From Paracyclopina nana (taxonomy: Eukaryota; Arthropoda; Copepoda; Cyclopoida; Cyclopettidae), in NCBI GenBank assembly GCA_019096065.1, contig JAGUCH010000007.1, forward strand, positions 4,610,501 to 4,674,500: 64,000 nt of DNA. Reading direction: 5' to 3'. How positions within the stretch are numbered: position 1 is the stretch's first letter; every line of letters starts with the position of its first letter. The notes beneath the pieces were generated by a model. It was not told the DNA's origin. It made no database searches and worked only from the letters and a program-made list of their open reading frames with translations. The translations under genes and the position numbers were made by a program. Shown here one piece after another: positions 19,176 through 40,981 of the stretch.

Positions 19176-19254
19176 TGTTGTATAGTACCTACACCACTCT
19201 GACACAATTGCGGTAATTAGAAAGCCCCATAGTAGTGCGTGGGAACCAAAATGC

Positions 19255-19375
19255 ACTCAGGGGTAAGTGCAATTTGCACCCTTGTGGGGGTGCAAAGGTG
19301 CAATTGCACCAAGGTGCAAAACAGGTGCTTTCTCAGGGTTGCACCATAGTTTTTAGTGCATTGCACTTTTGGTGA
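19255..19375 (+). repeat. GGTGCAA-type short repeats at the outer end
   Basis: A run of TGCAC/GTGCAA units in both orientations (for example GGTGCAAAGGTGCAATTGCACC) fills the space between the element end and the first BIR-RING gene; it is mirrored at about 40783-40903. It could act as a promoter or as a terminal binding site for integrase or replication proteins. Confidence 0.6.
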
Positions 19376-19417
19376 GGGTCAGTCACCTTGAGTTGCTACG
19401 GGGATAAAGAGCTCAAA

Positions 19418-20011
19418 ATGGAGGAAATAGTCAAATTTGTTGCACCCATGAATCACAAGTATGCTACTTTGGAAAGTAGACTCAACTCATTTGTCACCTG
19501 GCCCAAATACTTAATCCAAACCCCACTTGAGATGGCCAGGGCAGGATTTTTTTACTCTGGGGTTGGTCATATTGTTTTTTGCTATTATTGTCATCATAAA
19601 TGGGAAGAATGGATCAGGATGTTTGATCCTTGGGAGGAACATATTCTGTGGTCTCCCAATTGCCCCTATGTCCAATTGATGAAGGGAAAGTGTTATGTAG
19701 AGACTGTCACAGAGAGAGCAGAGAATGACGACGACTTTTCAATACTTGAATGCATAACATGCATGATTTGCTCAAAGAATCCACGAACGAAGGAGAAGGA
19801 TAAAAAACCCTATTTTGCAATGAAAGAAGAAGAAGAATGTAACACCTCAACAATACAAAATGAGTGCAAAATATGTTACAAAAGAGAGATCAACATGATG
19901 TTTTTACCTTGTAACCATGTGGTGTCTTGCCTAGTTTGTGGAACCTCAGTCAACAGATGCCCTATCTGTAGGATTCAGTTGACTGGCGGAGCAAGAGCTT
20001 TTTTGTCTTAA
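19418..20011 (+). CDS. BIR-RING inhibitor-of-apoptosis-like protein 1 (element)
   Basis: 197 aa. Residues 10-90 hold one BIR zinc domain (RLNSFVTWP, ARAGFFYSG, then the C-x2-C...H-x6-C ligands in FCYYCHHKW...WEEHILWSPNC). The C-terminus holds a RING-HC finger (ECKICYKREINMMFLPCNHV...CPICR) as found in viral and cellular IAPs. Such proteins block caspases or ubiquitinate cell-death factors, so a role in keeping the host cell alive is likely. The ATG at 19418 follows GAGCTCAAA; upstream codons in frame lack a better start. Captured from a host is the simplest origin. Confidence 0.88.
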   Translation: MEEIVKFVAPMNHKYATLESRLNSFVTWPKYLIQTPLEMARAGFFYSGVGHIVFCYYCHHKWEEWIRMFDPWEEHILWSPNCPYVQLMKGKCYVETVTERAENDDDFSILECITCMICSKNPRTKEKDKKPYFAMKEEEECNTSTIQNECKICYKREINMMFLPCNHVVSCLVCGTSVNRCPICRIQLTGGARAFLS

Positions 20012-20234
20012 TTCTTTTTAATGTGCTCATTAGGTTTTCTCAGAAAATAAAGTCTCAATTTCATCCCAGAACCAAAATGAGGTAAAAAAAATAGAATTGG
20101 TAGTTTTATGCACACAGGTACAAAAGTAGTGCATAACAAGTGCTTTCTCATGAACAAAAGCACAGGTCCAGTGCAATGCACTTTTTGTGTGGTCAGTCAC
20201 CTCTTGATGACTGGAGGAGAGAGAGCTAAAAAAA

Positions 20235-20774
20235 ATGGATCATATAATTATATTTAGAGAAACCATGAACAAAAAGTATGCTACTCTGGAAAGTAGACTC
20301 AAATCATTTGCAACTTGGCCTATTGGCTTAACCCAACGCCCTATTAAAATGGCAAAGGCAGGATTTTTTTACTCTGGGTGTGGAGATAGTGTCTACTGCT
20401 ACTATTGCCATGGTGGCATACATAGATGGTTGCCTAATGAGGATCCTTGGGTTGAGCATACATTATGGTTCCCCACCTGCCCCTATGTCCGTTTGATGAA
20501 AGGGGATCGGTTCATAAGACAAGTATGGCTAACTGGATCAACAGCGAGCAGGATCCTCAGTGAACAGAAAAAGGATGAAGGAGATGATGAAATAGAAGAA
20601 GCTAGGAGGTCAACGTTGAAAAATGAGTGCAAAATATGCTACCACAGAGAAATTGGCATGCTATTTTTGCCATGTCACCATGTGGTGTCATGTTTAGTTT
20701 GTGGAACCTCAGTCTACACCTGCCCTGTCTGTAGAACTCAGTTGATTGGTGCTGTAAGAGCTTTTTTGTCGTAA
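20235..20774 (+). CDS. BIR-RING inhibitor-of-apoptosis-like protein 2 (element)
   Basis: 179 aa; tandem duplicate of the gene before it. BIR: ARLKSFATWP-like start (RLKSFATWP), AKAGFFYSGCGDSVYCYYCH, HTLWFPTCPYV; RING: ECKICYHREIGMLFLPCHHV...CPVCRTQL. The linker between the domains is shorter and unrelated to that of copy 1. The upstream region is duplicated too (TGCTTTCTCA, GTGCAATGCACTTTT, GTCAGTCACC), so the duplication unit covered promoter plus gene. Confidence 0.87.
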   Translation: MDHIIIFRETMNKKYATLESRLKSFATWPIGLTQRPIKMAKAGFFYSGCGDSVYCYYCHGGIHRWLPNEDPWVEHTLWFPTCPYVRLMKGDRFIRQVWLTGSTASRILSEQKKDEGDDEIEEARRSTLKNECKICYHREIGMLFLPCHHVVSCLVCGTSVYTCPVCRTQLIGAVRAFLS

Positions 20775-20821
20775 ATAAATAAAAATTTCTTACATGTATC
20801 ATACAAGTTTATTCGGAAAGC

Positions 20822-21217
20822 TTAGTTCCACATTTTGTAGTCATTGGACTCTGTTTTTCTCACTTTGTTTGTTGCATGATTATCTAATGCACGACGATCA
20901 TACCAATCTGGCATAATGCGAGTCTTTGGGTCTCTGGCTGAGGCAACTTTTCGTTTCTGAGCTTCCCCAAGGGCATGAATATTTTTTAAATGCCGCTTTA
21001 GTGAATTACCACGGGTAAATTCAGAGCCACAGAGGGAGCAAGCAAAGCGTGGTGCCTCTTCTATCTCCATGGGTGGTTCTTGCATGGGGTCAATGATAGT
21101 GTTTGATTCTGGCATCATTTGCGGCTCTGGGGCAACTTGCCCTGAGGTGGTAGCAAGAACCTGCGGGATTTCAAGGGAAGCAATATCCAGGTTTTCGCAA
21201 AAGCATGATTTGGACAT
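20822..21217 (-). CDS. Single C2H2 zinc-finger protein (element)
   Basis: 131 aa, start chosen at the first ATG (MSKSCFCENLD). One classical C2H2 finger, FACSLCGSEFTRGNSLKRHLKNIH, follows an acidic/Pro-rich stretch; a basic tail ends the protein. It is divergent from the integrase gene with 126 bp between start codons, so the two probably share a promoter. It may be a DNA-binding regulator of the element. Confidence 0.65.
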   Translation of the reverse strand: MSKSCFCENLDIASLEIPQVLATTSGQVAPEPQMMPESNTIIDPMQEPPMEIEEAPRFACSLCGSEFTRGNSLKRHLKNIHALGEAQKRKVASARDPKTRIMPDWYDRRALDNHATNKVRKTESNDYKMWN

Positions 21218-21343
21218 TTCAGCCTTGTGCAAGCGCAAGCGAAGAAGAGAAAGAATCACCCCTCCAACCTCAGGCACCAAAAGAGCCTCAAAAACCAAAA
21301 AGGGAAAAGAGAAAACGAATGAGCGAAGATCCCATCATTCATC

Positions 21344-22423
21344 ATGCCGAGGCTAAAAAGAGCCGTCAAACTGCTTAGAGATAAATATACGATCCCTGGA
21401 CATCCAATTGCTTTTGCGGGCGTTGAAAAGATTCATCAGTTCTTCAAGGGGCAGCTGTCCCGTGAAGAAATTGAAGAGTACTTGAAATCTGTAGATGTCT
21501 TCACAGTCCATCGTCAGCCCAAGCCTAGTAAAATCTACAACCCTATTTATGTATACCACAAACGCGACCAAATTCAAGCGGACTTGTGCTCATTTTTTCA
21601 GCAAGAGAAGTACAATCAGGGGTTCAAGTATCAATTAGTGATCATTGATTCTTTCACCAGATTCGCTTGGGTGGTACCATTAAAGAACAAACGTGGACCA
21701 ACTGTGCTAGCCGCCTTCTCCAAGGTGTTTGACGAAGAAATTCACCAGGCTAGGAAACTGATAGTTGATGCGGGAACCGAGTTCCTCAATAGGCCATTTA
21801 GGTCGTGGCTTGATTCCAAAGGCATCAAGCTTCATGTTCCAAGAACCCTAGGGAAGGCTAGCTTTGCTGAAGCCTTCATCAAAACTCTAAAATCGCTCAT
21901 TTCAAGATACTGCACTGAATACAGCACCAGCTCCTTTGTTGAGGTGCTCCCAAAACTTGTGAAAAGTTACAACTTTCGGGTACATCGGGCCATAGGAACA
22001 AGCCCTGTAAAAGCGGAACGTGATCACAAAGAGCAGCTGCGAATCCGTGAGGCAAATTTGTTGCGCTATGCATCGATAACAAAGCGCAAGCCTAAGTATG
22101 AAGTGGGACAGCTTGTCAGGATCTCAAGGGACCTTGGCAAATTTGGTCGATCCTTCAATGCCCACTTTACCAACGAACTTTTTATTGTGAAGGAAATCGT
22201 CGACACAATGCCTATTCCCTTGTACACTCTCACTGACTTAAAGGGCCAGGACACATTGGAGGGGAGGTTTCGCAATGAAGAGCTCACTGGGGTCAAGCTT
22301 TCACTTCAATTGCATGTGGGCAAAATCCTAAGCAAAGAAGGTGACTATTGGACCATCAACTTTCAAGGGGCTCCACCATCATTAAGAGTAAAGTTGCATC
22401 GTAAAAATTTCAAGAAACAATAA
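21344..22423 (+). CDS. Polinton-type DDE integrase
   Basis: 359 aa, retroviral-type integrase of Polintons (relative of C. elegans F54H12.3). N-terminal helical region, then the rve core with first Asp in IQADLCSF, second Asp in VDAGTEFLNRP and the Glu in KASFAEAFIKTLK. A C-terminal SH3/chromo-like domain is marked by YEVGQLVRISRDLGKFGRSF, YTLTDLKGQDTLEGRFRNEEL. The enzyme would insert the linear element into host DNA. Its stop lies 4 nt before the ATG of the next gene, suggesting a shared transcript. Confidence 0.92.
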   Translation: MPRLKRAVKLLRDKYTIPGHPIAFAGVEKIHQFFKGQLSREEIEEYLKSVDVFTVHRQPKPSKIYNPIYVYHKRDQIQADLCSFFQQEKYNQGFKYQLVIIDSFTRFAWVVPLKNKRGPTVLAAFSKVFDEEIHQARKLIVDAGTEFLNRPFRSWLDSKGIKLHVPRTLGKASFAEAFIKTLKSLISRYCTEYSTSSFVEVLPKLVKSYNFRVHRAIGTSPVKAERDHKEQLRIREANLLRYASITKRKPKYEVGQLVRISRDLGKFGRSFNAHFTNELFIVKEIVDTMPIPLYTLTDLKGQDTLEGRFRNEELTGVKLSLQLHVGKILSKEGDYWTINFQGAPPSLRVKLHRKNFKKQ

Positions 22424-22427
22424 AAAG

Positions 22428-24023
22428 ATGCTTCTCCACTTAACTTCTAAACCGGAAACACCTCATTTAGCTAGCGTGAAGTTGCCCAAGAGCGGGGGCC
22501 TAGAATGTGGGGTGCTTTCAGTTTGCTTTTCATCTAGTTTCATCAACGAATCTATGCCTATCAATCCTGATCTGCCGGCCATGGCACTACTTGATACTGG
22601 CTTGGATGTTTCAAAAGAGTCATTGCTCAATTCAGCCGGTATTTATCTGCAACATGTACCCCTGTCCTTGTTTCACTTAACATTTTTACTCTCAAAAGAG
22701 CACACTAATCAAACACACCTAAAAGTAACTTATGATCCTGCCAGAGATGCTGTCTACCTGCTCTATCCCACTCTGCAAATCCCTTTCCCATACTTGTGGG
22801 TGCATGAAGGTTTGTTCAAGTTCTTGTGGAGAAATACAGAGCCAAGCCAGGTTGCATCATTCAACGGAAAGCACCAAGTTGATGGTGAAACATACTTCTC
22901 ATTGAGCATTCGTCACTGGAAGGTCAAGTCTCAACACTATGTTTTTTTGTCAAGGAATGGTAACCTTTCAGATTCACTGCCGACACTGTACAAGCCTATT
23001 GTGCACCTGACCTGTCCCCAACTTTTGCACCCACCATTTGTTGGACCACCCATCATTGCATCCATGGAAGTTGCATCGCCTCAGCAACATGTGTATGTTG
23101 AAAAGCAATTTAGAAATGCCCACTTTTTTGCTCTTTCCAAAGATTTCGAATCTGAGTTTGTTATTCAGTTATCTGACTCTGAAGGAAACCCACTGAGACT
23201 TCTACCAAACACAAAGCCTACAATTATCAGACTGTTAGCAAGACCGATGGGAGAAAAGAGAGAACACACATTCTTTGCCACTGCAACATCAAGAGGAGGC
23301 AAGAAGAATTGCCTCTCTCTCTCTTTTGGATCTCAATTGAGTGTAGGGCAATGGAGCCTAGCCCTTGCAACAGTCATGTTCAGCCCTCGGTTTTCAAACA
23401 ACCTCTCGGTTGAAGAAAGGCGAATTCATATTCTCAAAGAGTATGCCCCTAGTGCAAATAAGATGGCTGAGGAATTTGACATCATTATGCCATCAGGCAT
23501 ACTCTCTGTGGGTGAGCTCAAGCAATCTGTAACATCGCAAAGCAATTATAGAGTCAAGTTGGACTTGGAGCCCATCCACCAGTGCGTCATTTTCCACCCA
23601 CCAGAGAGCAATGCAAGGCTTACCCTCTCTATGAGCGCAAAATTGGCCCAGTTTTTGGGTGCCCAAATTCAAAAAGAGCAAATGAGCGCTAAATATCATG
23701 GCCACAAGATTGAATTTCCTCGGCCTGTTCAGCGAAGCAGTATTTCGCCCAATTGCATAGTTGTGTCTTGCAATGCTGTCCCAATTCAACCCATTGGAAA
23801 GCTTACGCTCCCAGCCCTTGGAATTGTACCAATTGAAACAACTAATTTAGAGGGTTTCATTTCATATGAGCCACCATCGCATCACTTTTTACCCATCTTA
23901 GTTTCAAGCGTAAGAAGAATTGAGTTTGAGCTCAGAACTCTGGAAGGCGCGCTCGTAAACTTTGATGAGGAGCATCCTGAAGAAGAAGTTGTGCTCAATC
24001 TAATTTTCAAGAGGAGTCATTAG
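22428..24023 (+). CDS. F54H12.2-like Polinton virus protein (capsid candidate)
   Basis: 531 aa. It lies directly behind the integrase, as the F54H12.2-like gene does in many invertebrate Polinton relatives. The C-terminal block RRIEFELRTLEGALVNFDEE followed by VVLNLIFKR resembles the conserved IEIxLRxxxGxxVxFxxGxxxVxLHFRR end of that protein, as I remember it. Beta-rich composition with few Cys is in keeping with a virion protein, and a jelly-roll capsid role is possible but not shown. No membrane segment is evident. Confidence 0.6.
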   Translation: MLLHLTSKPETPHLASVKLPKSGGLECGVLSVCFSSSFINESMPINPDLPAMALLDTGLDVSKESLLNSAGIYLQHVPLSLFHLTFLLSKEHTNQTHLKVTYDPARDAVYLLYPTLQIPFPYLWVHEGLFKFLWRNTEPSQVASFNGKHQVDGETYFSLSIRHWKVKSQHYVFLSRNGNLSDSLPTLYKPIVHLTCPQLLHPPFVGPPIIASMEVASPQQHVYVEKQFRNAHFFALSKDFESEFVIQLSDSEGNPLRLLPNTKPTIIRLLARPMGEKREHTFFATATSRGGKKNCLSLSFGSQLSVGQWSLALATVMFSPRFSNNLSVEERRIHILKEYAPSANKMAEEFDIIMPSGILSVGELKQSVTSQSNYRVKLDLEPIHQCVIFHPPESNARLTLSMSAKLAQFLGAQIQKEQMSAKYHGHKIEFPRPVQRSSISPNCIVVSCNAVPIQPIGKLTLPALGIVPIETTNLEGFISYEPPSHHFLPILVSSVRRIEFELRTLEGALVNFDEEHPEEEVVLNLIFKRSH

Positions 24024-24156
24024 TTATGTGTACTTGGAATTTTTTTATTATGATCTGATATTGAAATAAAAAACCAAAAAAAACCGAATAAAAAAAAATG
24101 GGTTGTTGTAGTAAATAAACACGACAATAAGAAAGGGAAAAAAAAGTCCTCATTCA

Positions 24157-27100
24157 TTATTTGCATTCATCCACTCCCCTCAGCATGGTTTCTTGCTCCA
24201 CTCGGGATAGCCCCAAACATCTTCTGCATTTGCCCTTGAAAATGACAATTTCAGGTGAGCCAAGCGGACAACTGTGGTTGGAACAATCAAACCAATGACG
24301 CTTGAGGTCAGTGATGGTGAGGCATTTTTTTTTGAATCCATATGTCCCAAGCAAAAAAGTTTTCATGCGAATGCCGTAAAAAGTGGCGTATTTTCTCTTT
24401 TTTTCAATGTAGGTTTGAAAGTAGTCCTCGAATGTAAACTCTTTTTCTACTAGTCTTGAGGGGACACCTTTGCACCGCTTGTGCACCAAAGTTGCACCTT
24501 GCTTTGCTATCTTGAGCGCATAAGACTTGGGTCGAAGTGCAACACACTCCAAAATTTCTTCGTCACCATTCACTTCAAGCTTCCAAAGATGCGGGTGATT
24601 TTTACGTGAATCATCATGCATTTCATGCTCTCTTGGAAAGTTTGAAGTATCTAAGAGATGCTTGAGACGGTGCAAATCTTTATCGGCATTCTTCTTGTCC
24701 ACTTTGATGATGTATGAATCTGTGTCATGGTACTGAACTGAGAGACTGTCTGGCCAAACAGCGGCAAATTCAAAGTACAAATCATTATAAACTTTGTTTT
24801 TGGCCAACTCGAGAATGGCAAAAGCAAGGTAAATTGGCTTATTCAGGTGAACACGCTTTGGTTGCATGTAAACAAATGTCAATCCTGAGCCCAGCTCTTT
24901 GAACCCCTTGAAGTTTGATGAGTTAACACACTTTTGGATGTCAACGGGTCTTTTAGATACTTTCAGCTCAATGTAGCTGCGTACCTGCTCATTAGTTTTT
25001 CCATAAATGGAGTTGGGGATAGACTTCAGCATGTTGCCTTCAAACTTTGTCTTTGCCCTGGCTCTGCGTTTGAGAAAATCCATCATAAAGTCTTGGCCAA
25101 AGGGGCGCTGATCAAATTCCAAAATTGAGTGGATTTTGTCCAATCGCATGCCTATCCTAAGATAAGTTTGCAGCGTTGCCAAGTGGGTCATGTAATTCTT
25201 GCGTGGGAAATATGTTGCTGTGAGCAGTTTTTGTTGAAACTTATCCCGTCCCTCAATGTCCTTCATGAGGCGCCTAGTGAAGGCGGATACCATGTCTTGA
25301 TCCACCGTCAGTGATTCAGGGCAGAGTGGAAAGTCACTTGTCTTCAAACAGATACTTGCGGGGTAGTGCAAATCAACAAGAACAAAGTACCCTTTCCCCT
25401 CTGCCAAGGGGTTGATATCCATCAGGGGGAAATGCTCCACCTCTGCCGGTGAGAGCCACCGAAAACCACCAACTGGCAAGCTTAGCATAAAGCAAGAGCA
25501 ATAAAGGCTATTTGCATCAATGTAATACACTGAGGCATCATCGGTTTTAGTGGTGTGATGCATGGAGGCAGAGCAAAGCCCTCCTCTGATTTGGGACTCA
25601 AACAGCTTGTAAGTGTCCAAATCGGTCAACAGTTCTAGCTCAACCTTGGTGAGCTTGAGAAATGAATCAAACCCCATCGATGGAAGAGTCATGTACCTCA
25701 GACTTTCAAGGCCCAGCGTCTCCATCATTTGCGATCGGTACACTTGCATGACCTCTGCCAATAGCAGGGTATCCAGATGCATGTACACCACCATGTAGTC
25801 TAGCATGGTCTGACATTCCAGCATTCTAAAGAGTTCCTTGCCTTTAGCATGTTCCTCTTTGGTAGCTGAGAAGTCTTGAATCAAGTCGCTGTAAAAGTGA
25901 TCCCGAGCGGGAAACTCATGCCATACCTTGAGAGACTCAACACTGGTCACCAACTGGTAGGGAAACGGTGCTTTAGTCAAAAGTTTTTCTTTTCGACTCA
26001 AATCAAAGGTTCCTTGCTTGTTCTTGCAAAGATCCGATTGGGCAAGAATCGGATATTTGTGGTTGCTGGCTTCCAGTGTCTTGGCTAAAGTGGCTAGGCT
26101 TGAGTTCAAATGATGCATACTGTCAATGCAAATGAAGCTGTTGAACTGCAGGCACCTCAGCTTTTCCATGTTTTTTGGCAAAGCTTTGATGCTTCGAACG
26201 TGGTTATTTTCAATGCCTTTCAGAATGAAGGAAACATCATAGTGAAAAAGGTTGTGCATGACCACCACAATTTTCTGAGCTGAATCAGCCGCTTTCATGT
26301 TGCAAACATGGTGAGCGGCACCAATAAAGGCCCCTGAATTGTGGTTATGATGGGCCACAATGCGCTGGTATCCATCAGGGAGTTGATGCTGGGAACCATA
26401 CCTCACGTCATAAACAGGATCAAAAGGCTCCAGACACAAGCAGCATCTTGGAGCGTCAAAAAAGCTATCCCATTCCCTGGCTCCCAAGGCAGCTGGGACA
26501 GAGGCCGAAATTTTTTTCAGCAGCAAAGGCTCCAGGTCTAGCAAGGCTCGGACAAATTTGGTGCCAGCACATCGAGCATCGCAAGTATCCCAAGCTTCAT
26601 GAAGAAGGCGGCTTTCATGGTCAACAACCACAAATGAATATGAAATGGCTTCATGAGAGTGAGTTTGCTCTGTGTATGGTGAATCCGAGTGTGAGTTGCA
26701 TTTGCATTTTGCACCTATAGCAGTTTTTTCCAGGACGCACTTTTGGCAGGGCTGTTGCGTTGGCAAAAGAGCAGACTCAAAGTCACCATAGATGACGATT
26801 GGAGCTTGTATTTGACGATTTGTATTCTTAAATTGTAGAATGGGAGGCAAACCGTCATCAGTTCTTCGTGGCATGATTTCCTCGGGACCAAAAACAGGAA
26901 ACGTGCCATCGATGTAATGGGAATACACGCAACACTTGTTTTGATGCTCTTCCAGTTTGGTAAATGAATAAAAGGTGTTTAAGCATCTTTCGCAAAATTT
27001 GCGACGTGTGTTCCTTGATTCCTGAGCTCCATGCTTGTAGGGAGCTAAAAACTTGTTGATGTTTTCAATCAGCAAGTATCTCCATTGTGTTTGGCCATCT

Positions 27101-27402
27101 GCTGATGGAATTCTCAAGAGGGGAACCAAGTACTTAGGCCTGTAGTTTTCAGGGGCTTGCAATGCTGTAACAATTGGCTGAACGCTGTTGTCATTTTCCA
27201 AGGAGAAGAGATGGATTGCAAAATTAAAGGTTCTTCCGTTTTGATGAACAAATTTTTCCACAAACTCAATTTCATCCTCGGTGAAAGGAGGTTGATTAAA
27301 ATCTTGGGGTGAGCAATCAATGGCGTGAGCCAGAGCGTAGTAAAAAGAGGCGCGCTCATTGACGTCAAAATGTCTCAAGTGTTGCACTCTAGGAATGCTC
27401 AT
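24157..27402 (-). CDS. Protein-primed family-B DNA polymerase
   Basis: 1081 aa from the ATG MSIPRVQ. Exonuclease motifs: VIYGDFESALL (Exo I), VMHNLFHYDVSFIL (Exo II) and DYMVVYMHLDTLLLAEV (Exo III). Polymerase motifs: YYIDANSLYCSCF (A), KSIPNSIYGKTNEQ (B) and VQYHDTDSYIIKV (C), then a Lys-x-Tyr-type KSYAL. The N-terminal part carries Cys/His clusters (CERCLNTFYSFTKLEEHQNKC; CCLCLEPF) and the C-terminus ends in a Cys-rich knuckle (CSNHSCPLG...CRRC). This is the pPolB of Polintons and adenovirus-like elements, replicating linear DNA from protein-bound ends. Convergent with the preceding gene. Confidence 0.95.
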   Translation of the reverse strand: MSIPRVQHLRHFDVNERASFYYALAHAIDCSPQDFNQPPFTEDEIEFVEKFVHQNGRTFNFAIHLFSLENDNSVQPIVTALQAPENYRPKYLVPLLRIPSADGQTQWRYLLIENINKFLAPYKHGAQESRNTRRKFCERCLNTFYSFTKLEEHQNKCCVYSHYIDGTFPVFGPEEIMPRRTDDGLPPILQFKNTNRQIQAPIVIYGDFESALLPTQQPCQKCVLEKTAIGAKCKCNSHSDSPYTEQTHSHEAISYSFVVVDHESRLLHEAWDTCDARCAGTKFVRALLDLEPLLLKKISASVPAALGAREWDSFFDAPRCCLCLEPFDPVYDVRYGSQHQLPDGYQRIVAHHNHNSGAFIGAAHHVCNMKAADSAQKIVVVMHNLFHYDVSFILKGIENNHVRSIKALPKNMEKLRCLQFNSFICIDSMHHLNSSLATLAKTLEASNHKYPILAQSDLCKNKQGTFDLSRKEKLLTKAPFPYQLVTSVESLKVWHEFPARDHFYSDLIQDFSATKEEHAKGKELFRMLECQTMLDYMVVYMHLDTLLLAEVMQVYRSQMMETLGLESLRYMTLPSMGFDSFLKLTKVELELLTDLDTYKLFESQIRGGLCSASMHHTTKTDDASVYYIDANSLYCSCFMLSLPVGGFRWLSPAEVEHFPLMDINPLAEGKGYFVLVDLHYPASICLKTSDFPLCPESLTVDQDMVSAFTRRLMKDIEGRDKFQQKLLTATYFPRKNYMTHLATLQTYLRIGMRLDKIHSILEFDQRPFGQDFMMDFLKRRARAKTKFEGNMLKSIPNSIYGKTNEQVRSYIELKVSKRPVDIQKCVNSSNFKGFKELGSGLTFVYMQPKRVHLNKPIYLAFAILELAKNKVYNDLYFEFAAVWPDSLSVQYHDTDSYIIKVDKKNADKDLHRLKHLLDTSNFPREHEMHDDSRKNHPHLWKLEVNGDEEILECVALRPKSYALKIAKQGATLVHKRCKGVPSRLVEKEFTFEDYFQTYIEKKRKYATFYGIRMKTFLLGTYGFKKKCLTITDLKRHWFDCSNHSCPLGSPEIVIFKGKCRRCLGLSRVEQETMLRGVDECK

Positions 27403-27672
27403 GGCGACTAAAGAACATGAGTGAGTCAACTGTGGGAATTCTATGCACGGGAGAAAGACTGAGAAAGCCTACCTGTCCCGCAAAACAGACATGTCTAAAT
27501 GAAGAGTAATTTGACCGAGAAGTGGAATGTGCTTTTATTTACGTGTGATGAATAAATCATTGTGCACCATGATTGGTGGACTAGTTGATATGGACTAGTG
27601 GAGGTATTGGGGAAAAAAAAAATGGTATCAGAAAATAATATGAGATCATGGACACGCATGCAATAAAAAAAG

Positions 27673-30818: not shown

Positions 30819-30996
30819 TGAGGCATTTAATCTTGTGTCGCATACACCTCACAATCACTGGCTCATTGTTTTCTTTTCTTTCAGACTCGCTGACTGCATT
30901 GGCTTCAGCCCAATGAAGCGTCTCTTCGATCCTCATGCTACCATTGCGATTCTTACACTTTTTCTCTTATCCCCACCAATTTTGGCTTCTTAGGTC

Positions 30997-31680: not shown

Positions 31681-31849
31681 AAAAACATTAAAAGTGAAAA
31701 ATTATCCTCAGAGGCAAAGGAAAAAAAGGCATAAAACTGACAAAAAAATGCATAAAGAATTAAAGTATGGTTCTTGCCCCATTTTGCACCCTCCCAGCAC
31801 ACAAAACACTCTTTTTTCTCACCGACACTGGTTTTTTGTTACAGATTTT

Positions 31850-32515
31850 GTTTGACGACAACATGAACATGGAGATTCAATTTGGTGTGCTCCGTCCAAT
31901 CGATGTCGATCGCTTCTTTTGGTGCATTGAATTCCATCTCCAAGCAGCAAAGGACAGCGCTGAATCGGGTACCATTGCTCTCACCGGCCTTGAGGCTTGA
32001 TGGTTTTGAATGCAGTCAGGTGTGATATAGGTTATGCAATAGCTTCACCTTACATGCATTTTTTTTTACTCTAGGCAATACATCGTGGCATCTTTTCAAT
32101 GTTATGAGCTCAAAGCTCACATCCATGCAATGAAGAGGATTGTCAAGGATTTTATGGCACTTCATGATCCCTCCAGCATGATGACCTCACCCTATGTCTC
32201 TCATGTTGAGGCGCACATTCAAAGACGCACCATGCTGTCGCCATTTGCATTCGCGAGGGTGTCAGCAATGCCACTCAAGATTGTCAACATTGCCATTGCA
32301 GCAATCTTTTGCTTCGCACATTGGATGATGATGCACTCAAGCGCACCTCGAGACTCATTACGAGGAACATGCGCACTGCGCAAGAAACTGTGACCAAGCT
32401 GGAGGCTCTAATTCCTAGTGGTCAAATCGAGGAGCAAAGAGCGTACGCATTGACATCGGGGTTCGCATAAGAGAAGTGGCTGATGAGGATGAAGGTTTCA
32501 ATGAGTTAATTGAAT
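31850..32515 (+). pseudogene. Mirror copy of the two-exon unknown (right arm), broken
   Basis: Reverse-complement copy of 27673-28349 with a few breaks; the intron-like spacer is kept. Confidence 0.55.
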
Positions 32516-32787
32516 AGCTTTTTTTATTGCATGCGTGTCCATGATCTCATATTATTTTCTGATACCATTTTTTTTTTCCCCAATACCTCCACTAGTCCAT
32601 ATCAACTAGTCCACCAATCATGGTGCACAATGATTTATTCATCACACGTAAATAAAAGCACATTCCACTTCTCGGTCAAATTACTCTTCATTTAGACATG
32701 TCTGTTTTGCGGGACAGGTAGGCTTTCTCAGTCTTTCTCCCGTGCATAGAATTCCCACAGTTGACTCACTCATGTTCTTTAGTCGCC

Positions 32788-35700
32788 ATGAGCATTCCTA
32801 GAGTGCAACACTTGAGACATTTTGACGTCAATGAGCGCGCCTCTTTTTACTACGCTCTGGCTCACGCCATTGATTGCTCACCCCAAGATTTTAATCAACC
32901 TCCTTTCACCGAGGATGAAATTGAGTTTGTGGAAAAATTTGTTCATCAAAACGGAAGAACCTTTAATTTTGCAATCCATCTCTTCTCCTTGGAAAATGAC
33001 AACAGCGTTCAGCCAATTGTTACAGCATTGCAAGCCCCTGAAAACTACAGGCCTAAGTACTTGGTTCCTCTTGAGAATTCCATCAGCAGATGGCCAAACA
33101 CAATGGAGATACTTGCTGATTGAAAACATCAACAAGTTTTTAGCTCCCTACAAGCATGGAGCTCAGGAATCAAGGAACACACGTCGCAAATTTTGCGAAA
33201 GATGCTTAAACACCTTTTATTCATTTACCAAACTGGAAGAGCATCAAAACAAGTGTTGCGTGTATTCCCATTACATCGATGGCACGTTTCCTGTTTTTGG
33301 TCCCGAGGAAATCATGCCACGAAGAACTGATGACGGTTTGCCTCCCATTCTACAATTTAAGAATACAAATCGTCAAATACAAGCTCCAATCGTCATCTAT
33401 GGTGACTTTGAGTCTGCTCTTTTGCCAACGCAACAGCCCTGCCAAAAGTGCGTCCTGGAAAAGCTGCTATAGGTGCAAAATGCAAATGCAACTCACACTC
33501 GGATTCACCATACACAGAGCAAACTCACTCTCATGAAGCCATTTCATATTCATTTGTGGTTGTTGACCATGAAAGCCGCCTTCTTCATGAAGCTTGGGAT
33601 ACTTGCGATGCTCGATGTGCTGGCACCAAATTTGTCCGAGCCTTGCTAGACCTGGAGCCTTTGCTGCTGAAAAAAATTTCGGCCTCTGTCCCAGCTGCCT
33701 TGGGAGCCAGGGAATGGGATAGCTTTTGACGCTCCAAGATGCTGCTTGTGTCTGGAGCCTTTGATCCTGTTTATGACGTGAGGTATGGTTCCCAGCATCA
33801 ACTCCCTGATGGATACCAGCGCATTGTGGCCCATCATAACCTCAATTCAGGGGCGCTTTATTGGTGCCGCTCACCATGTTTGCAACATGAAAGCGGCTGA
33901 TTCAGCTCAGAAAATTGTGGTGGTCATGCACAACCTTTTTCACTATGATGTTTCCTTCATTCTGAAAGGCATTGAAAATAACCACGTTCAAGCATCAAAG
34001 CTTTGCCAAAAAACATGGAAAAGCTGAGGTGCCTGCAGTTCAACAGCTTCATTTGCATTGACAGTATGCATCATTTGAACTCAAGCCTAGCCACTTTAGC
34101 CAAGACACTGGAAGCCAGCAACCACAAATATCCGATTCTTGCCCAATCGGATCTTTGCAAGAACAAGCAAGGAACCTTTGATTTGAGTCGAAAAGAAAAA
34201 CTTTGACTAAAGCACAGTTTCCCTACCAGTTGGTGACCAGTGTTGAGTCTCTCAAGGTATGGCATGAGTTTCCGCTCGGGATCACTTTTACAGCGACTTG
34301 ATTCAAGACTTCTCAGCTACCAAAGAGGAACATGCTAAAGGCAAGGAACTCTTTAGAATGCTGGAATGTCAGACCATGCTAGACTACATGGTGGTGTACA
34401 TGCATCTGGATACCCTGCTATTGGCAGAGGTCATGCAAGTGTACCGATCGCAAATGATGGAGACGCTGGGCCTTGAAAGTCTGAGGTACATGACTCTTCC
34501 ATCGATGGGGTTTGATTCATTTCTCAAGCTCACCAAGGTTGAGCTAGAACTGTTGACCGATTTGGACACTTACAAGCTGTTTGAGTCCCAAATCAGAGGA
34601 GGGCTTTGCTCTGCCTCCATGCATCACACCACTAAAACCGATGATGCCTCAGTGTATTACATTGATGCAAATAGCCTTTATTGCTCTTGCTTTATGCTAA
34701 GCTTGCCAGTTGGTGGTTTTCGGTGGCTCTCACCGGCAGAGGTGGAGCATTTCCCCCTGATGGATATCAACCCCTTGGCAGAGGGAAAGGGTACTTTGTT
34801 CTTGTTGATTTGCACTACCCCGCAAGTATCTGTTTGAAGACAAGTGACTTTCCACTCTGCCCTGAATCACTGACGGTGGATCAAGACATGGTATCCGCCT
34901 TCACTAGGCGCCTCATGAAGGACATTGAGGGACGGGATAAGTTTCAACAAAAACTGCTCACAGCAACATATTTCCCACGCAAGAATTACATGACCCACTT
35001 GGCAACGCTGCAAACTTATCTTAGGATAGGCATGCGATTGGACAAAATCCACTCAATTTTGGAATTTGATCAGCGCCCCTTTGGCCAAGACATGATGGAT
35101 TTTCTCAAACGCAGAGCCAGGGCAAAGACAAAGTTTGAAGGCAACATGCTGAAGTCTATCCCCAACTCCATTTATGGAAAAACTAATGAGCAGGTACGCA
35201 GCTACATTGAGCTGAAAGTATCTAAAAGACCCGTTGACATCCAAAAGTGTGTTAACTCATCAAACTTCAAGGGGTTCAAAGAGCTGGGCTCAGGATTGAC
35301 ATTTGTTTACATGCAACCAAAGCGTGTTCACCTGAATAAGCCAATTTACCTTGCTTTTGCCATTCTCGAGTTGGCCAAAAACAAAGTTTATAATGATTTG
35401 TACTTTGAATTTGCCGCTGTTTGGCCAGACAGTCTCTCAGTTCAGTACCATGACACAGATTCATACATCATCAAAGTGGACAAGAAGAATGCCGATAAAG
35501 ATTTGCACCGTCTCAAGCATCTCTTAGATACTTCAAACTTTCAGAGAGCATGAAATGCATGATGATTCACGTAAAAATCACCCGCATCTTTGGAAGCTTG
35601 AAGTGAATGGTGACGAAGAAATTTTGGAGTGTGTTGCACTTCGACCCAAGTCTTATGCGCTCAAGATAGCAAAGCAAGGTGCAACTTTGGTGCACAAGCG

Positions 35701-36016
35701 GTGCAAAGGTGTCCCCTCAAGACTAGTAGAAAAAGAGTTTACATTCGAGGACTACTTTCAAACCTACATTGAAAAAAAGAGAAAATACGCCACTTTTTAC
35801 GGCATTCGCATGAAAACTTTGCTTGGGACATATGGATTCAAAAAAAAATGCCTCACCATCACTGACCTCAAGCGTCATTGGTTTGATTGTTCCAACCACA
35901 GTTGTCCGCTTGGCTCACCTGAAATTGTCATTTTCAAGGGCAAATGCAGAAGATGTTTGGGGCTATCCCGAAGTGAGCAAGAAACCATGCTGAGGGGAGT
36001 GGATGAATGCAAATAA
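32788..36016 (+). pseudogene. Mirror copy of DNA polymerase B (right arm), broken
   Basis: Reverse-complement copy of the polymerase gene at 24157-27402. All regions are recognisable, with about eight breaks. The two copies are otherwise nearly identical, so this is a very young fossil or a region of poor consensus quality. Confidence 0.8.
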
Positions 36017-36147
36017 TGAATGAGGACTTTTTTTTCCTTTCTTATTGTCTTGTTTATTTACTACAACAACCCATTTTTTTTATTCGGTTTTTTTTTGGTT
36101 TTTATTTCAATCTCAGATCATAATAAAAAAATTCCAAGTACACATAA

Positions 36148-37739
36148 CTAATGACTCCTCTTGAAAATTAGATTGAGCACAACTTCTTCTTCAGGATGCT
36201 CCTCATCAAAGTTTACGAGCGCGCCTTCCAGAGTTCTGAGCTCAAACTCAATTCTTCTTACGCTGAAACTAAGATGAGTAAAAAGTGATGCGATGGTGGC
36301 TCATATGAAATGAAACCCTCTAAATTAGTTGTTTCAATTGGTACAATTCCAAGGGCTGGGAGCGTAAGCTTTCCAATGGGTTGAATTGGGACAGCATTGC
36401 AAGACACAACTATGCAATTGGGCGAAATACTGCTTCGCTGAACAGGCCGAGGAAATTCAATCTTGTGGCCATGATATTTAGCGCTCATTTGCTCTTTTTG
36501 AATTTGGGCACCCAAAAACTGGGCCAATTTTGCGCTCATAGAGAGAGGGTAAGCCTTGCATTGCTCTCTGGTGGGTGGAAAATGACGCACTGGTGGATGG
36601 GCTCAAGTCCAACTTGACTCTATAATTGCTTTGCGATGTTACAGATTGCTTGAGCTCACCCACAGAGAGTATGCCTGATGGCATAATGATGTCAAATTCC
36701 TCAGCCATCTTATTTGCACTAGGGGCATACTCTTTGAGAATATGAATTCGCCTTTCTTCAACCGAGAGGTTGTTTGAAAACCGAGGGCTGAACATGACTG
36801 TTGCAAGGGCTAGGCTCCATTGCCCTACACTCAATTGAGATCCAAAAGAGAGAGAGGCAATTCTTCTTGCCTCCTCTTGATGTTGCAGTGGCAAAGAATG
36901 TGTGTTCTCTCTTTTCTCCCATCGGTCTTGCTAACAGTCTGATAATTGTAGGCTTTGTGTTTGGTAGAAGTCTCAGTGGGTTTCCTTCAGAGTCAGATAA
37001 CTGAATAACAAACTCAGATTCGAAATCTTTGGAAAGAGCAAAAGTGGGCCTTTCTAAATTGCTTTTCAACATACACATGTTGCTGATGCGATGCAACTTC
37101 CATGGATGCAATGATGGGTGGTCCAACAAATGGTGGGTGCAAAAGTTGGGGACAGGTCAGGTGCACAATAGGCTTGTACAGTGTCGGCAGTGAATCTGAA
37201 AGGTTACCATTCCTTGACAAAAAAACATAGTGTTGAGACTTGACCTTCCAGTGACGAATGCTCAATGAGAAGTATGTTTCACCATCAACTTGGTGCTTTC
37301 CGTTGAATGATGCAACCTGGCTTGGCTCTGTATTTCTCCACAAGAACTTGAACAAACCTTCATGCACCCACAAGTATGGGAAAGGGATTTGCAGAGTGGG
37401 ATAGAGCAGGTAGACAGCATCTCTGGCAGGATCATAAGTTACTTTTAGGTGTGTTTGATTAGTGTGCTCTTTTGAGAGTAAAAATGTTAAGTGAAACAAG
37501 GACAGGGGTACATGTTGCAGATAAATACCGGCTGAATTGAGCAATGACTCTTTGGTTACATCCAAGCCAGTATCAAGTAGTGCCATGGCCGGCAGATCAG
37601 GATTGATAGGCATAGATTCGTTGATGAAACTAGATGAAAAGCAAACTGAAAGCACCCCACATTCTAGGCCCCCGCTCTTGGGCAACTTCACGCTAGCTAA
37701 ATGAGGTGTTTCCGGTTTAGAAGTTAAGTGGAGAAGCAT
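36148..37739 (-). pseudogene. Mirror copy of the F54H12.2-like gene (right arm), broken
   Basis: Reverse-complement copy of 22428-24023 with about four breaks, directly behind the mirror integrase as in the left arm. Confidence 0.75.
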
Positions 37740-37743
37740 CTTT

Positions 37744-38823
37744 TTATTGTTTCTTGAAATTTTTACGATGCAACTTTACTCTTAATGATGGTGGAGCCCC
37801 TTGAAAGTTGATGGTCCAATAGTCACCTTCTTTGCTTAGGATTTTGCCCACATGCAATTGAAGTGAAAGCTTGACCCCAGTGAGCTCTTCATTGCGAAAC
37901 CTCCCCTCCAATGTGTCCTGGCCCTTTAAGTCAGTGAGAGTGTACAAGGGAATAGGCATTGTGTCGACGATTTCCTTCACAATAAAAAGTTCGTTGGTAA
38001 AGTGGGCATTGAAGGATCGACCAAATTTGCCAAGGTCCCTTGAGATCCTGACAAGCTGTCCCACTTCATACTTAGGCTTGCGCTTTGTTATCGATGCATA
38101 GCGCAACAAATTTGCCTCACGGATTCGCAGCTGCTCTTTGTGATCACGTTCCGCTTTTACAGGGCTTGTTCCTATGGCCCGATGTACCCGAAAGTTGTAA
38201 CTTTTCACAAGTTTTGGGAGCACCTCAACAAAGGAGCTGGTGCTGTATTCAGTGCAGTATCTTGAAATGAGCGATTTTAGAGTTTTGATGAAGGCTTCAG
38301 CAAAGCTAGCCTTCCCTAGGGTTCTTGGAACATGAAGCTTGATGCCTTTGGAATCAAGCCACGACCTAAATGGCCTATTGAGGAACTCGGTTCCCGCATC
38401 AACTATCAGTTTCCTAGCCTGGTGAATTTCTTCGTCAAACACCTTGGAGAAGGCGGCTAGCACAGTTGGTCCACGTTTGTTCTTTAATGGTACCACCCAA
38501 GCGAATCTGGTGAAAGAATCAATGATCACTAATTGATACTTGAACCCCTGATTGTACTTCTCTTGCTGAAAAAATGAGCACAAGTCCGCTTGAATTTGGT
38601 CGCGTTTGTGGTATACATAAATAGGGTTGTAGATTTTACTAGGCTTGGGCTGACGATGGACTGTGAAGACATCTACAGATTTCAAGTACTCTTCAATTTC
38701 TTCACGGGACAGCTGCCCCTTGAAGAACTGATGAATCTTTTCAACGCCCGCAAAAGCAATTGGATGTCCAGGGATCGTATATTTATCTCTAAGCAGTTTG
38801 ACGGCTCTTTTTAGCCTCGGCAT
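37744..38823 (-). CDS. Mirror copy of the integrase (right arm)
   Basis: Uninterrupted reverse-complement copy of 21344-22423, with the same 359-aa predicted protein. Confidence 0.85.
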   Translation of the reverse strand: MPRLKRAVKLLRDKYTIPGHPIAFAGVEKIHQFFKGQLSREEIEEYLKSVDVFTVHRQPKPSKIYNPIYVYHKRDQIQADLCSFFQQEKYNQGFKYQLVIIDSFTRFAWVVPLKNKRGPTVLAAFSKVFDEEIHQARKLIVDAGTEFLNRPFRSWLDSKGIKLHVPRTLGKASFAEAFIKTLKSLISRYCTEYSTSSFVEVLPKLVKSYNFRVHRAIGTSPVKAERDHKEQLRIREANLLRYASITKRKPKYEVGQLVRISRDLGKFGRSFNAHFTNELFIVKEIVDTMPIPLYTLTDLKGQDTLEGRFRNEELTGVKLSLQLHVGKILSKEGDYWTINFQGAPPSLRVKLHRKNFKKQ

Positions 38824-38947
38824 GATGAATGATGGGATCTTCGCTCATTCGTTTTCTCTTTTCCCTTTTTGGTTTTTGAGGCTCTTCTGGTGCCTGAGGT
38901 TGGAGGTGATTCTTTCTCTTCTTCGCTTGCGCTTGCACAAGGCTGAA

Positions 38948-39343
38948 ATGTCCAAATCATGCTTTTGCGAAAACCTGGATATTGCTTCCCTTGAAATCCC
39001 GCAGGTTCTTGCTACCACCTCAGGGCAAGTTGCCCCAGAGCCGCAAATGATGCCAGAATCAAACACTATCATTGACCCCATGCAAGAACCACCCATGGAG
39101 ATAGAAGAGGCACCACGCTTTGCTTGCTCCCTCTGTGGCTCTGAATTTACCCGTGGTAATTCACTAAAGCGGCATTTAAAAAATATTCATGCCCTTGGGG
39201 AAGCTCAGAAACGAAAAGTTGCCTCAGCCAGAGACCCAAAGACTCGCATTATGCCAGATTGGTATGATCGTCGTGCATTAGATAATCATGCAACAAACAA
39301 AGTGAGAAAAACAGATTCCAATGACTACAAAATTTGGAACTAA
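38948..39343 (+). CDS. Mirror copy of the single C2H2 protein (right arm)
   Basis: Uninterrupted reverse-complement copy of 20822-21217, divergent from the mirror integrase; it differs from the left copy by only a couple of residues near the C-terminus. Confidence 0.6.
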   Translation: MSKSCFCENLDIASLEIPQVLATTSGQVAPEPQMMPESNTIIDPMQEPPMEIEEAPRFACSLCGSEFTRGNSLKRHLKNIHALGEAQKRKVASARDPKTRIMPDWYDRRALDNHATNKVRKTDSNDYKIWN

Positions 39344-39386
39344 GCTTTCCGAATAAACTAGTATGATACATGTAAGAAATTTTTAT

Positions 39387-39927
39387 TTATTTACGACAAA
39401 AAGCTCTTACAGCACCAGTCAACTGAGTTCTACAGACAGGGCAGGTGTAGACTGAGGTTCCACAAACTAAACATGACACCACATGGTGACATGGCAAAAA
39501 TAGCATGCCAATTTCTCTGTGGTAGCATATTTTGCACTCATTTTTCAACGGTGACCTCCTAGCTTCTTCTTTTTCATCATCTCCTTCATCCTTTCTGTTC
39601 ACTGAGGATCCTGCTCGCTGTTGATCCAGTTAGCCATACTTGTCTTATGAACCGATCCCCTTTCATCAAACGGACATAGGGGCAGGTGGGGAACCATAAT
39701 GTATGCTCAACCCAAGGATCCTCATTAGGCAACCATCTATGTATGCCACCATGGCAATAGTAGCAGTAGACACTATCTCCACACCCAGAGTAAAAAAATC
39801 CTGCCTTTGCCATTTTAATAGGGCGTTGGGTTAAGCCAATAGGCCAAGTTGCAAATGATTTGAGTCTACTTTCCAGAGTAGCATACTTTTAGTTCATGGT
39901 TTCTCTAAATATAATTATATGATCCAT
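39387..39927 (-). pseudogene. Mirror copy of BIR-RING protein 2 (right arm), broken
   Basis: Reverse-complement copy of 20235-20774; both BIR and RING parts are recognisable, with a few breaks. Confidence 0.7.
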
Positions 39928-40146
39928 TTTTTTAGCTCTCTCCTCCAGTCATCAAGAGGTGACTGACCACACTAAAAGTGCATTGCACTGGACCTGTGCT
40001 TTTGTTCATGAGAAAGCACTTGTTATGCACTACTTTTGTACCTGTGTGCATAAAACTACCAATTCTATTTTTTTTACCTCATTTTGGTTCTGGGATGAAA
40101 TTGAGACTTTATTTTCTGAGAAAACCTAATGAGCACATTAAAAGAA

Positions 40147-40740
40147 TTAAGACAAAAAAGCTCTTGCTCCGCCAGTCAACTGAATCCTACAGATAGGGCA
40201 TCTGTTGACTGAGGTTCCACAAACTAGGCAAGACACCACATGGTTACAAGGTAAAAACATCATGTTGATCTCTCTTTTGTAACATATTTTGCACTCATTT
40301 TGTATTGTTGAGGTGTTACATTCTTCTTCTTCTTTCATTGCAAAATAGGGTTTTTTATCCTTCTCCTTCGTTCGTGGATTCTTTGAGCAAATCATGCATG
40401 TTATGCATTCAAGTATTGAAAAGTCGTCGTCATTCTCTGCTCTCTCTGTGACAGTCTCTACATAACACTTTCCCTTCATCAATTGGACATAGGGGCAATT
40501 GGGAGACCACAGAATATGTTCCTCCCAAGGATCAAACATCCTGATCCATTCTTCCCATTTATGATGACAATAATAGCAAAAAACAATATGACCAACCCCA
40601 GAGTAAAAAAATCCTGCCCTGGCCATCTCAAGTGGGGTTTGGATTAAGTATTTGGGCCAGGTGACAAATGAGTTGAGTCTACTTTCCAAAGTAGCATACT
40701 TGTGATTCATGGGTGCAACAAATTTGACTATTTCCTCCAT
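40147..40740 (-). CDS. Mirror copy of BIR-RING protein 1 (right arm)
   Basis: Uninterrupted reverse-complement copy of 19418-20011 with the same predicted protein. It lies next to the outer right end with its short-repeat promoter region mirrored. Confidence 0.8.
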   Translation of the reverse strand: MEEIVKFVAPMNHKYATLESRLNSFVTWPKYLIQTPLEMARAGFFYSGVGHIVFCYYCHHKWEEWIRMFDPWEEHILWSPNCPYVQLMKGKCYVETVTERAENDDDFSILECITCMICSKNPRTKEKDKKPYFAMKEEEECNTSTIQNECKICYKREINMMFLPCNHVVSCLVCGTSVNRCPICRIQLTGGARAFLS

Positions 40741-40981
40741 TTTGAGCTCTTTATCCCCGTAGCAACTCAAGGTGACTGACCCTCACCAAAAGTGCAATGC
40801 ACTAAAAACTATGGTGCAACCCTGAGAAAGCACCTGTTTTGCACCTTGGTGCAATTGCACCTTTGCACCCCCACAAGGGTGCAAATTGCACTTACCCCTG
40901 AGTGCATTTTGGTTCCCACGCACTACTATGGGGCTTTCTAATTACCGCAATTGTGTCAGAGTGGTGTAGGTACTATACAAC

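What the first reader, a model, noticed from the sequence alone, without database searches (positions are those of the whole stretch)
19177..40981. A Polinton-like element present as a 21.8-kb head-to-head palindromic dimer
Two full copies are joined tail-inward around a 42-nt GC-rich loop, with unique host DNA and a 7-bp direct repeat outside. The inner end shows no copy of the outer terminal sequence, so the palindrome is not simply two ordinary elements with their own terminal repeats; either the inverted repeats of this element span the whole gene set or a replicative dimer was integrated as one unit. Hairpin-joined dimers are known as replication forms in parvoviruses and poxviruses, but I know of no such form for Polintons.
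Basis: partly seen in the sequence, partly recalled or inferred. Interest (0 to 1): 0.9.

Follow-up and report, generated by a model that had tools for sequence, protein, structure and literature searches.

The report
Palindromic capsid-less Maverick satellite in animal genome
A virus-like mobile element in an animal genome exists in a mirror-image form that has lost its coat-protein gene, has about the length of the complete element and has inserted at three separate places, which looks like the DNA record of a parasitic 'defective' genome that lives off the complete one.

Summary
The 21.8-kb palindrome is real (19176-40982) and is one of six copies found of a Maverick/Polinton family in this 92-Mb genome. 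[quoted passage not shown] Three are palindromes, three full-length single elements. The arms are not full copies: each lacks about 3.78 kb carrying the major capsid protein, a packaging-ATPase-like gene, a TBP-like gene and part of a TFIIB-like gene, and everything beyond the centre. All six arms share one deletion junction. The palindrome turns at a 7-bp inverted repeat still present in the full-length copies, and its loop is the sequence inside that repeat. So one snapback event made a palindromic derivative that later integrated at three sites. Its length (21.80-21.82 kb) matches the full element's (21.64-22.36 kb). Private substitutions are shared by both arms and look neutral. Best reading: a snapback, defective-interfering-type Maverick genome, helper-dependent for packaging (inferred). 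A second, older, 30-kb palindrome of another Maverick family lies in the same genome; it keeps its capsid gene, which weakens the length argument. No reads were available.

The parts
19170..19175 (+). left target-site duplication CACATT
   Evidence: perfect 6-bp TSDs in 6 of 6 copies
40983..40988 (+). right target-site duplication CACATT
19176..30079 (+). left arm of the palindrome
30122..40982 (-). right arm (mirror of the left arm, with excess small deletions)
30080..30121 (+). 42-nt GC-rich loop at the centre; a near-identical 42-43-nt sequence lies between the same 7-bp inverted repeat in the full-length copies (opposite orientation here)
30073..30079 (+). left half of the 7-bp stem GCCCGCC at the fold-back point
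30122..30128 (+). right half of the stem, GGCGGGC
19176..19628 (+). terminal sequence that matches both ends of the full-length copies (their other end at 94.3-96.7% over 454-455 columns); the outermost 219-225 bp match at 100% at all 12 ends found
19418..20011 (+). IAP-like gene 1 (BIR + RING)
   Evidence: (reading frame from 19388): BIR 5.5e-17, RING 2.7e-14
20235..20774 (+). IAP-like gene 2 (BIR + RING)
   Evidence: BIR 2.2e-20, RING 4.6e-12
21136..21139 (+). junction of the 3.78-kb deletion (2-bp overlap TT, 21137-21138); removes MCP, ATPase-like, 143-aa and TBP-like ORFs and part of the C2H2 and TFIIB-like ORFs
   Evidence: same junction in 6 of 6 palindrome arms
39026..39029 (-). the same deletion junction in the right arm (position computed from the arm alignment)
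   Evidence: sequence seen in L021
21344..22423 (+). integrase (rve), left arm
   Evidence: PF00665 2e-10
37744..38823 (-). integrase (rve), right arm
22428..24023 (+). 531-aa protein after the integrase, function unresolved (minor capsid/penton is a guess)
   Evidence: no family; model too poor
24157..27402 (-). family B DNA polymerase, left arm, open frame
   Evidence: phrog_1907 DNA polymerase 3.3e-19; homologue P0005 with PF03175
32822..36016 (+). polymerase in the right arm, frame broken into several ORFs by small indels (probably consensus errors)
28536..29216 (-). C2H2 zinc-finger ORF
   Evidence: 2.1e-6
29395..29955 (-). 186-aa ORF next to the centre; in a full-length copy its stop-to-stop frame (296 codons) runs across the fold-back point

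Best explanation
This is an integrated copy of a snapback, defective-interfering-type genome of a Maverick/Polinton. SHOWN by comparison of copies: the palindrome arms lack the capsid, ATPase-like and TBP-like genes that the full-length copies have; the DNA turns back on itself at a 7-bp inverted repeat about two thirds along the full element, giving a mirror-image molecule with two left ends; this molecule is of single origin and integrated at three loci with 6-bp target-site duplications. INFERRED: the missing genes were deleted (rather than gained by the others), which the gene content and a relative with the same gene order support; the turn happened during protein-primed strand-displacement replication, when a growing or displaced strand folded at the repeat and copied itself; the palindrome was then propagated with the help of full-length elements, which supply the capsid; and its length was selected to fit the capsid.
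For: Six copies: the 12 ends found pair as six elements (counts are lower bounds); 6 of 6 with perfect 6-bp TSDs. Three palindromes and three full-length copies. The MCP is missing from the palindromes and in this family was found only in the 3 full-length copies (3 of 15 matches at 100%, the next at 61%); the MCP identity rests on homologues and a fold match to the Sputnik, PBCV-1 and mavirus capsid proteins and adenovirus hexon (best E 2.8e-13, from a low-confidence model, pLDDT 58.6). Same deletion junction in 6 of 6 arms, and near-identical loops inside the same stem in 3 of 3 palindromes and 3 of 3 full-length copies, show one origin. A 7-bp inverted repeat with a 30-55-nt loop occurs at 0.34-0.53% of positions in four element pieces (1.8% in the GC-rich 400 bp), so its presence exactly at the turn is unlikely by chance. 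Lengths 21,807/21,817/21,804 against 21,636/21,694/22,355; without the deletion the palindrome would be about 29.4 kb. Of 48 fixed differences between the two forms, coding ones are mostly silent (30 S, 7 N, 11 noncoding), whereas the 27 substitutions private to one palindrome and shared by both its arms are 4 S, 19 N, 4 noncoding, like random change (Fisher p 2e-6): no selection on the palindromes' own genes is detected since the copies parted. The C3 plus-arm integrase matches only to residue 344 of 359.
Against: No reads, so the centre rests on the assembly. Packaging, helper dependence and interference are not shown. The palindromes keep integrase and polymerase genes and might move unaided. 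The length match was noticed after the fact, and the second palindrome in this genome (C9:805591-835548) is 30 kb and keeps its MCP, so a 22-kb limit is not general, unless that family's full-length form is longer, which could not be tested. Neutral change shared by both arms could also come from gene conversion after insertion. The 7-bp repeat lies in GC-rich sequence, where such repeats are commoner.
Confidence: 0.7

Rival explanations
1. A self-sufficient transposon: the palindrome keeps integrase and polymerase and moved within the nucleus without capsid or helper, so the length match is chance.
For: Integrase and polymerase frames are open in the left arm; the outer 225 bp match at 100% at 6 of 6 palindrome ends; the 30-kb palindrome of another family shows that palindromes need not be 22 kb.
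Against: Changes private to single palindromes look neutral (4 S, 19 N), so no selection on their own enzymes is seen; mean length within 0.4% of the full-length mean.
Confidence: 0.2
2. Assembly artefact: fold-back reads or a mis-join produced mirror-image contigs from single elements.
For: In 3 of 3 palindromes of the family the second arm carries more deletions and arm-specific substitutions than the first; lower accuracy in inverted duplicates is known for nanopore reads (PMC7229812, passages read).
Against: The same centre and deletion at three loci with different flanks and a perfect TSD on both sides; fold-back reads would repeat the same flank; private substitutions differ between loci and are shared by both arms; three full-length copies of the same family assembled as single elements; the older palindrome's arm divergence is mainly substitutions, 59% of them transitions, with 3 of 58 right-arm gaps in homopolymers.
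Confidence: 0.05
3. In-place origin: an integrated, deleted copy was turned into an inverted duplication by host replication or repair and later moved twice; the arms are kept alike by gene conversion as in Y-chromosome palindromes.
For: 27 substitutions shared by both arms with neutral pattern fit post-insertion conversion; snapback at short inverted repeats also occurs in chromosomes (recalled).
Against: At least two of the three insertions still need a palindromic molecule as substrate; the older palindrome's arms differ at 1052 of 14,181 compared columns, so conversion has not kept those arms alike.
Confidence: 0.15
4. One reading: a replicative dimer of the whole element, or a family whose inverted repeats normally span the whole gene set.
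For: The palindrome integrates as one unit; the second family's palindrome carries MCP, TBP-, TFIIB-like, integrase and polymerase genes on its arm.
Against: Full-length single copies of the window's family have two ordinary terminal repeats and 3.78 + about 7 kb that the arms lack.
Confidence: 0.05

Closest known systems
Polinton/Maverick elements (polintoviruses, adintovirus-like)
   Same: rve integrase, family B polymerase with a PF03175 relative, double-jelly-roll MCP in the full-length copies, terminal inverted repeats, 6-bp TSD
   Different: no palindromic form seen in the listings; the terminal motif TGTTGTATAG differs from the vertebrate end motifs quoted in PMC8097293 (passages read)
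AAV snapback genomes (PMC8235507: abstract and section 3.1 read)
   Same: self-complementary genome made of one end of the virus, described there as a major category of defective interfering particles
   Different: AAV has a single-stranded genome with hairpin ends and is not protein-primed (recalled); this is an integrated 22-kb form of a Maverick at three loci of an animal genome
Palindrome-hairpin derivatives of the yeast killer plasmid pGKL1, and symmetric defective adenovirus genomes (both recalled, no call retrieved them)
   Same: protein-primed linear DNA with family B polymerase that yields mirror-image deletion forms carrying two copies of one end
   Different: not integrated with TSDs; different hosts; recalled only
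Y-chromosome palindromes (recalled)
   Same: long arms with shared private substitutions
   Different: there the cause is in-place gene conversion; here the unit inserted as a palindrome

Membership tests
Polinton/Maverick (full-length copies C7b, C1, C2) | RVE-type integrase (PMC4028283 passages) | tested here: met
   PF00665 2e-10 for the window copy; integrase frame without stops at all three full-length loci, 99-100% identical
[quoted passage not shown]
   window copy: phrog_1907 3.3e-19, homologue P0005 with PF03175, but no Pfam hit at E 0.01; 99% identical piece in the full-length copies; protein priming itself not testable here
Polinton/Maverick (full-length copies C7b, C1, C2) | double-jelly-roll major capsid protein | tested here: met
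   (low-confidence model, strong fold matches)
Polinton/Maverick (full-length copies C7b, C1, C2) | FtsK/A32-type packaging ATPase | tested here: inconclusive
   Walker A fragment, Pox_A32 E 0.0012, below the gathering score; frame in two pieces in C7b
Polinton/Maverick (full-length copies C7b, C1, C2) | adenovirus-type cysteine protease and penton | tested here: inconclusive
   none recognised by Pfam among the ORFs tested; 531-aa model unusable
[quoted passage not shown]
Defective-interfering / snapback genome | mirror-image genome made from one end of a coexisting full genome | tested here: met
Defective-interfering / snapback genome | loss of a gene essential for particles | tested here: met
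   MCP absent from 3 of 3 palindromes of the family
Defective-interfering / snapback genome | propagation after formation (not a dead end) | tested here: met
   three insertions with separate TSDs from one origin
Defective-interfering / snapback genome | dependence on and interference with a helper; encapsidation | not testable with these tools
   only indirect: length match and neutral change

The most novel reading that the evidence does not exclude
A Maverick virus and its length-matched palindromic satellite travel together in an animal germline: the satellite arises by snapback in protein-primed replication, is kept mirror-perfect by repeated snapback, is packaged in the helper's capsid and integrates with the integrase. 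Since palindromes arose in at least two Maverick families of one genome, this is a recurrent part of Maverick biology and a genomic trace that these elements make size-limited particles.
Probability: 0.4. Interest if true: 0.92.

Novelty: new variant of a known kind. Interest (0 to 1): 0.82.

Why it matters
Maverick particles have not been observed (abstract of PMC8097293, listing). A capsid-less derivative that has regained the full genome length and still spread is what packaging in trans would leave behind, and it gives a testable prediction. It would also extend snapback defective genomes to integrating elements of the adenovirus-like lineage, as integrated copies, and warns that palindromic endogenous elements may be missed or 'corrected' away in assemblies.

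Tried and rejected
Two abutting elements: rejected, no outer-end sequence at the centre; for the second family the same test gave only a 25-bp, 84% match at E 0.006 near the centre, which I take as chance but cannot exclude. Single accident at one locus: rejected by three loci. Right-arm differences as evolutionary decay: rejected for the window copy (mostly small deletions, 14 of 19 in homopolymers in a 5-kb segment) and thought unlikely for the other two, where the excess is smaller. Relatives in IMG/VR: none confirmed (pattern-based, reach close relatives only), so no outside monomer/dimer comparison. Polarising the fixed differences with the 68% relative at C3:5.88 Mb gave too few sites (9 of 49 polarised, 7 of them silent; that count also admits columns with gaps, hence 49 and not 48). 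Structure of the 531-aa protein: model unusable. TSD of the second palindrome: unclear. Naming the host: only weak hints (the four best hits are unnamed ENA proteins; named hits include arthropods and other animals; only 7,999 candidates were scored). Papers: no palindromic Polinton in the listings (20 of 154 listed; 12 of 28; 12 of 15); searches did not list the adenovirus or pGKL1 cases that I recall.

Not tested: whether each copy's frames are open over their whole length; population data; reads. A genome-wide polymerase protein search did not complete.
Full report
WHAT IS THERE. The window (G000:C7:4610501-4674500) holds an inverted repeat of the whole stretch 19176-40982 (98.94%) around a 42-nt loop at 30080-30121. 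Outside it is a 6-bp duplication, CACATT. The arm carries two IAP-like genes (BIR + RING), an rve integrase, a 531-aa protein without known family, a family B polymerase and C2H2 zinc-finger ORFs.

THE FAMILY. Searches of the own genome with the outer end, integrase, a polymerase piece and the inner end agree on six elements: 12 ends in six inverted pairs, and 9 integrase, 9 polymerase and 9 inner-end copies (3 x 2 + 3), plus one 67-68% relative at C3:5.88 Mb. The tool calls such counts lower bounds. Palindromes: C7:4629676-4651482 (window), C9:2260531-2282347, C3:1716846-1738649. Full-length: C7:6955233-6976868 ('C7b'), C1:14720947-14742640, C2:2183750-2206104. All six have perfect, different 6-bp TSDs: cacatt, aacgag, ggttgc; cttaat, accgac, cgcgcc. 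No pair of their twelve 1.5-kb flanks matched at E 1e-5. So the palindrome itself was a substrate of integration at three sites.

HOW THE TWO FORMS RELATE. The full-length copy C7b follows the palindrome arm from its left end to window 21138, then has 3.78 kb that the arm lacks, resumes at 21137 and runs to the palindrome's centre and about 7 kb beyond it to a right terminal repeat; C1 and C2 show the same break at 21137 and the same continuation past the centre. The missing 3.78 kb, read in C7b, holds in order part of a C2H2 ORF, a 143-aa ORF, a packaging-ATPase-like gene (Pox_A32 0.0012, below the gathering score), the MCP, a TBP-like gene (PF00352 9.6e-7) and part of a TFIIB-like gene (PF00382 6.4e-5, just below the gathering score; 4.8e-10 in the C3:5.88 Mb relative). 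That relative has the order MCP, TBP, TFIIB, integrase, 531-aa homologue as well, which speaks for loss in the palindrome. The lost right part holds ORFs of 219, at least 224, and 137 aa (the last with an MBD, 1e-13) and a Rab/Ras-like fragment (1.3e-5). The MCP has homologues in the protein search (3 hits, 24-34% identity) and its model matches virophage, PBCV-1 and adenovirus double-jelly-roll capsid proteins (the model is weak, pLDDT 58.6). In this genome the family's MCP was found in the three full-length copies only. The deletion junction has a 2-bp overlap and is the same in 6 of 6 palindrome arms.

THE CENTRE. In all three full-length copies the place of the centre reads GCCCGCC - 42 or 43 nt - GGCGGGC; in the palindromes the same stem encloses a 40-42-nt loop of nearly the same sequence, but after GGCGGGC the palindrome continues with the mirror image. 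The window's loop lies in the opposite orientation to the other two, as expected if a mirror-image molecule inserts either way round. Such stems with 30-55-nt loops occur at 0.34-0.53% of positions in four element pieces and at 1.8% of the local GC-rich 400 bp. This is what a strand folding at a short inverted repeat and copying itself would leave.

HISTORY. I compared about 10.5 kb in four segments across all copies (the C3 minus arm was held for 8,974 positions only); 176 columns vary. 48 substitutions separate palindromes from full-length copies; in coding sequence 30 are silent and 7 not (random expectation 22% silent). Substitutions private to one palindrome but present in both its arms (as far as held) number 13 (C3), 5 (C9) and 9 (window): 4 silent, 19 not, 4 noncoding, as for random change. 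Variation among the full-length copies (34 columns) is intermediate, 12 silent to 13 not. Substitutions in a plus arm alone number 0 (window), 1 (C9) and 4 (C3, plus 4 where the other arm was not held); minus arms alone have 21 (window), 21 (C9) and 7 (C3), with extra deletions. Nine columns fitted none of these classes. So the forms diverged under purifying selection, the palindromes have one origin, and since the copies parted their genes show no detected selection while the arms stayed alike. Two mechanisms fit the last point: repeated snapback copying before insertion, or gene conversion after it. A caution: arms polished with each other's reads could also look more alike than they are.

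LENGTH. Palindromes are 21,804-21,817 bp; full-length copies 21,636, 21,694 and 22,355 bp; means differ by 0.4%. Two undeleted arms would give about 29.4 kb. For vertebrate Mavericks a spread of about 10% around a mean of about 17 kb has been read as a constrained genome size (PMC8097293, passages read). I take the match as evidence for packaging, with the caution that I noticed it after the fact and that the three palindromes, having one origin, count once.

A SECOND PALINDROME. MCP hits on opposite strands 22 kb apart led to C9:805591-835548, an old palindrome of another Maverick family: arms 75-93% identical by segment, 1052 substitutions in 14,181 compared columns, 59% of them transitions, centre near 820,809, where 0.6 kb is itself an inverted repeat. 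Its left arm carries TBP-like, TFIIB zinc-ribbon-like (below the cut-off), integrase, polymerase (PF03175 2e-12) and C2H2 ORFs, and the MCP, so unlike the window element it kept its capsid gene and is 30 kb long. Its centre also lies just beyond the polymerase and C2H2 ORFs. Its TSD is unclear. It supports recurrence of palindrome formation, argues against a universal 22-kb limit, and shows that the arms of an old insertion do diverge. Among the 100 integrase rows listed I see no further pair of Maverick-type hits in opposite orientation within 40 kb; the polymerase search that could reveal more did not complete.

IS IT AN ARTEFACT? The second arm of each of the three palindromes has more deletions and more arm-specific substitutions than the first, most strongly in the window copy. 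Nanopore reads through inverted duplicates have lower accuracy, ascribed to refolding behind the pore (PMC7229812, passages read); the sequencing method used here is not known to me. Why the same side is affected three times is not explained. A fold-back artefact would repeat the same flank; here the flanks differ and carry TSDs at three loci. I give the artefact 5%.

WHAT IT WORKS LIKE. Self-complementary snapback genomes made from one end are a major category of AAV defective interfering particles (PMC8235507, abstract and section 3.1 read). Mirror-image forms of protein-primed linear DNAs (yeast pGKL1 derivatives, defective adenoviruses) are recalled, not retrieved. The palindrome works like a snapback defective genome; whether it is packaged, depends on or interferes with the full-length element is not shown. 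The rivals are listed with their weights; these are not exclusive of each other and need not sum to one.

Noticed in passing
G000:C9:805591-835548 (L054-L057): Second, older palindromic Maverick of another family, about 30 kb, MCP kept, arms strongly diverged; by the ORF lists the right arm is more broken than the left.
   Followed up: partly
L024:201-815, L024:728-1510; L030:51-635, L030:593-1363; L055:300-2205: Elements of three Maverick families here carry adjacent TBP-like and TFIIB-like genes before the integrase; the window's palindrome has lost the first and cut the second.
   Followed up: partly
19418-20011 and 20235-20774; L019:1258-1503: Tandem pair of BIR+RING (IAP-like) genes at the left end; a BIR fragment lies in the right terminal region of a full-length copy.
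   Followed up: partly
L042:966-1376 and L042:3044-3403: The right part of a full-length copy carries a methyl-CpG-binding-domain ORF and a Rab/Ras-like fragment, probably captured from a host.
   Followed up: no
30122-40982 and the minus arms at C9 and C3: In 3 of 3 palindromes of the family the second arm has more deletions than the first (37 vs reference, 16 vs 5, 18 vs 11); the consistent side is unexplained.
   Followed up: partly
G000: About five other groups of Maverick loci by integrase score (no tree made): C3:5.88; C2:6.46/C8:1.92/C9:3.98; C1:16.40/C3:9.67; C2:14.45/C2:2.00/C1:1.07 Mb; and the C9:0.81 palindrome.
   Followed up: no
45293-45965: Overlapping, diverged tandem repeats (72-77% between copies) in host DNA.
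   Followed up: no
3934-4577 and 5938-6575; 11304-11673 and 12957-13321: Diverged direct duplications in host DNA (72% and 67%).
   Followed up: no
54696-54834: Short imperfect inverted repeat (80% over 145 columns) in host DNA.
   Followed up: no
254-1126 and 59458-60171: Sulfotransferase-family ORFs (PF03567 7.2e-6; PF06990 1.7e-24) in the host flanks.
   Followed up: no
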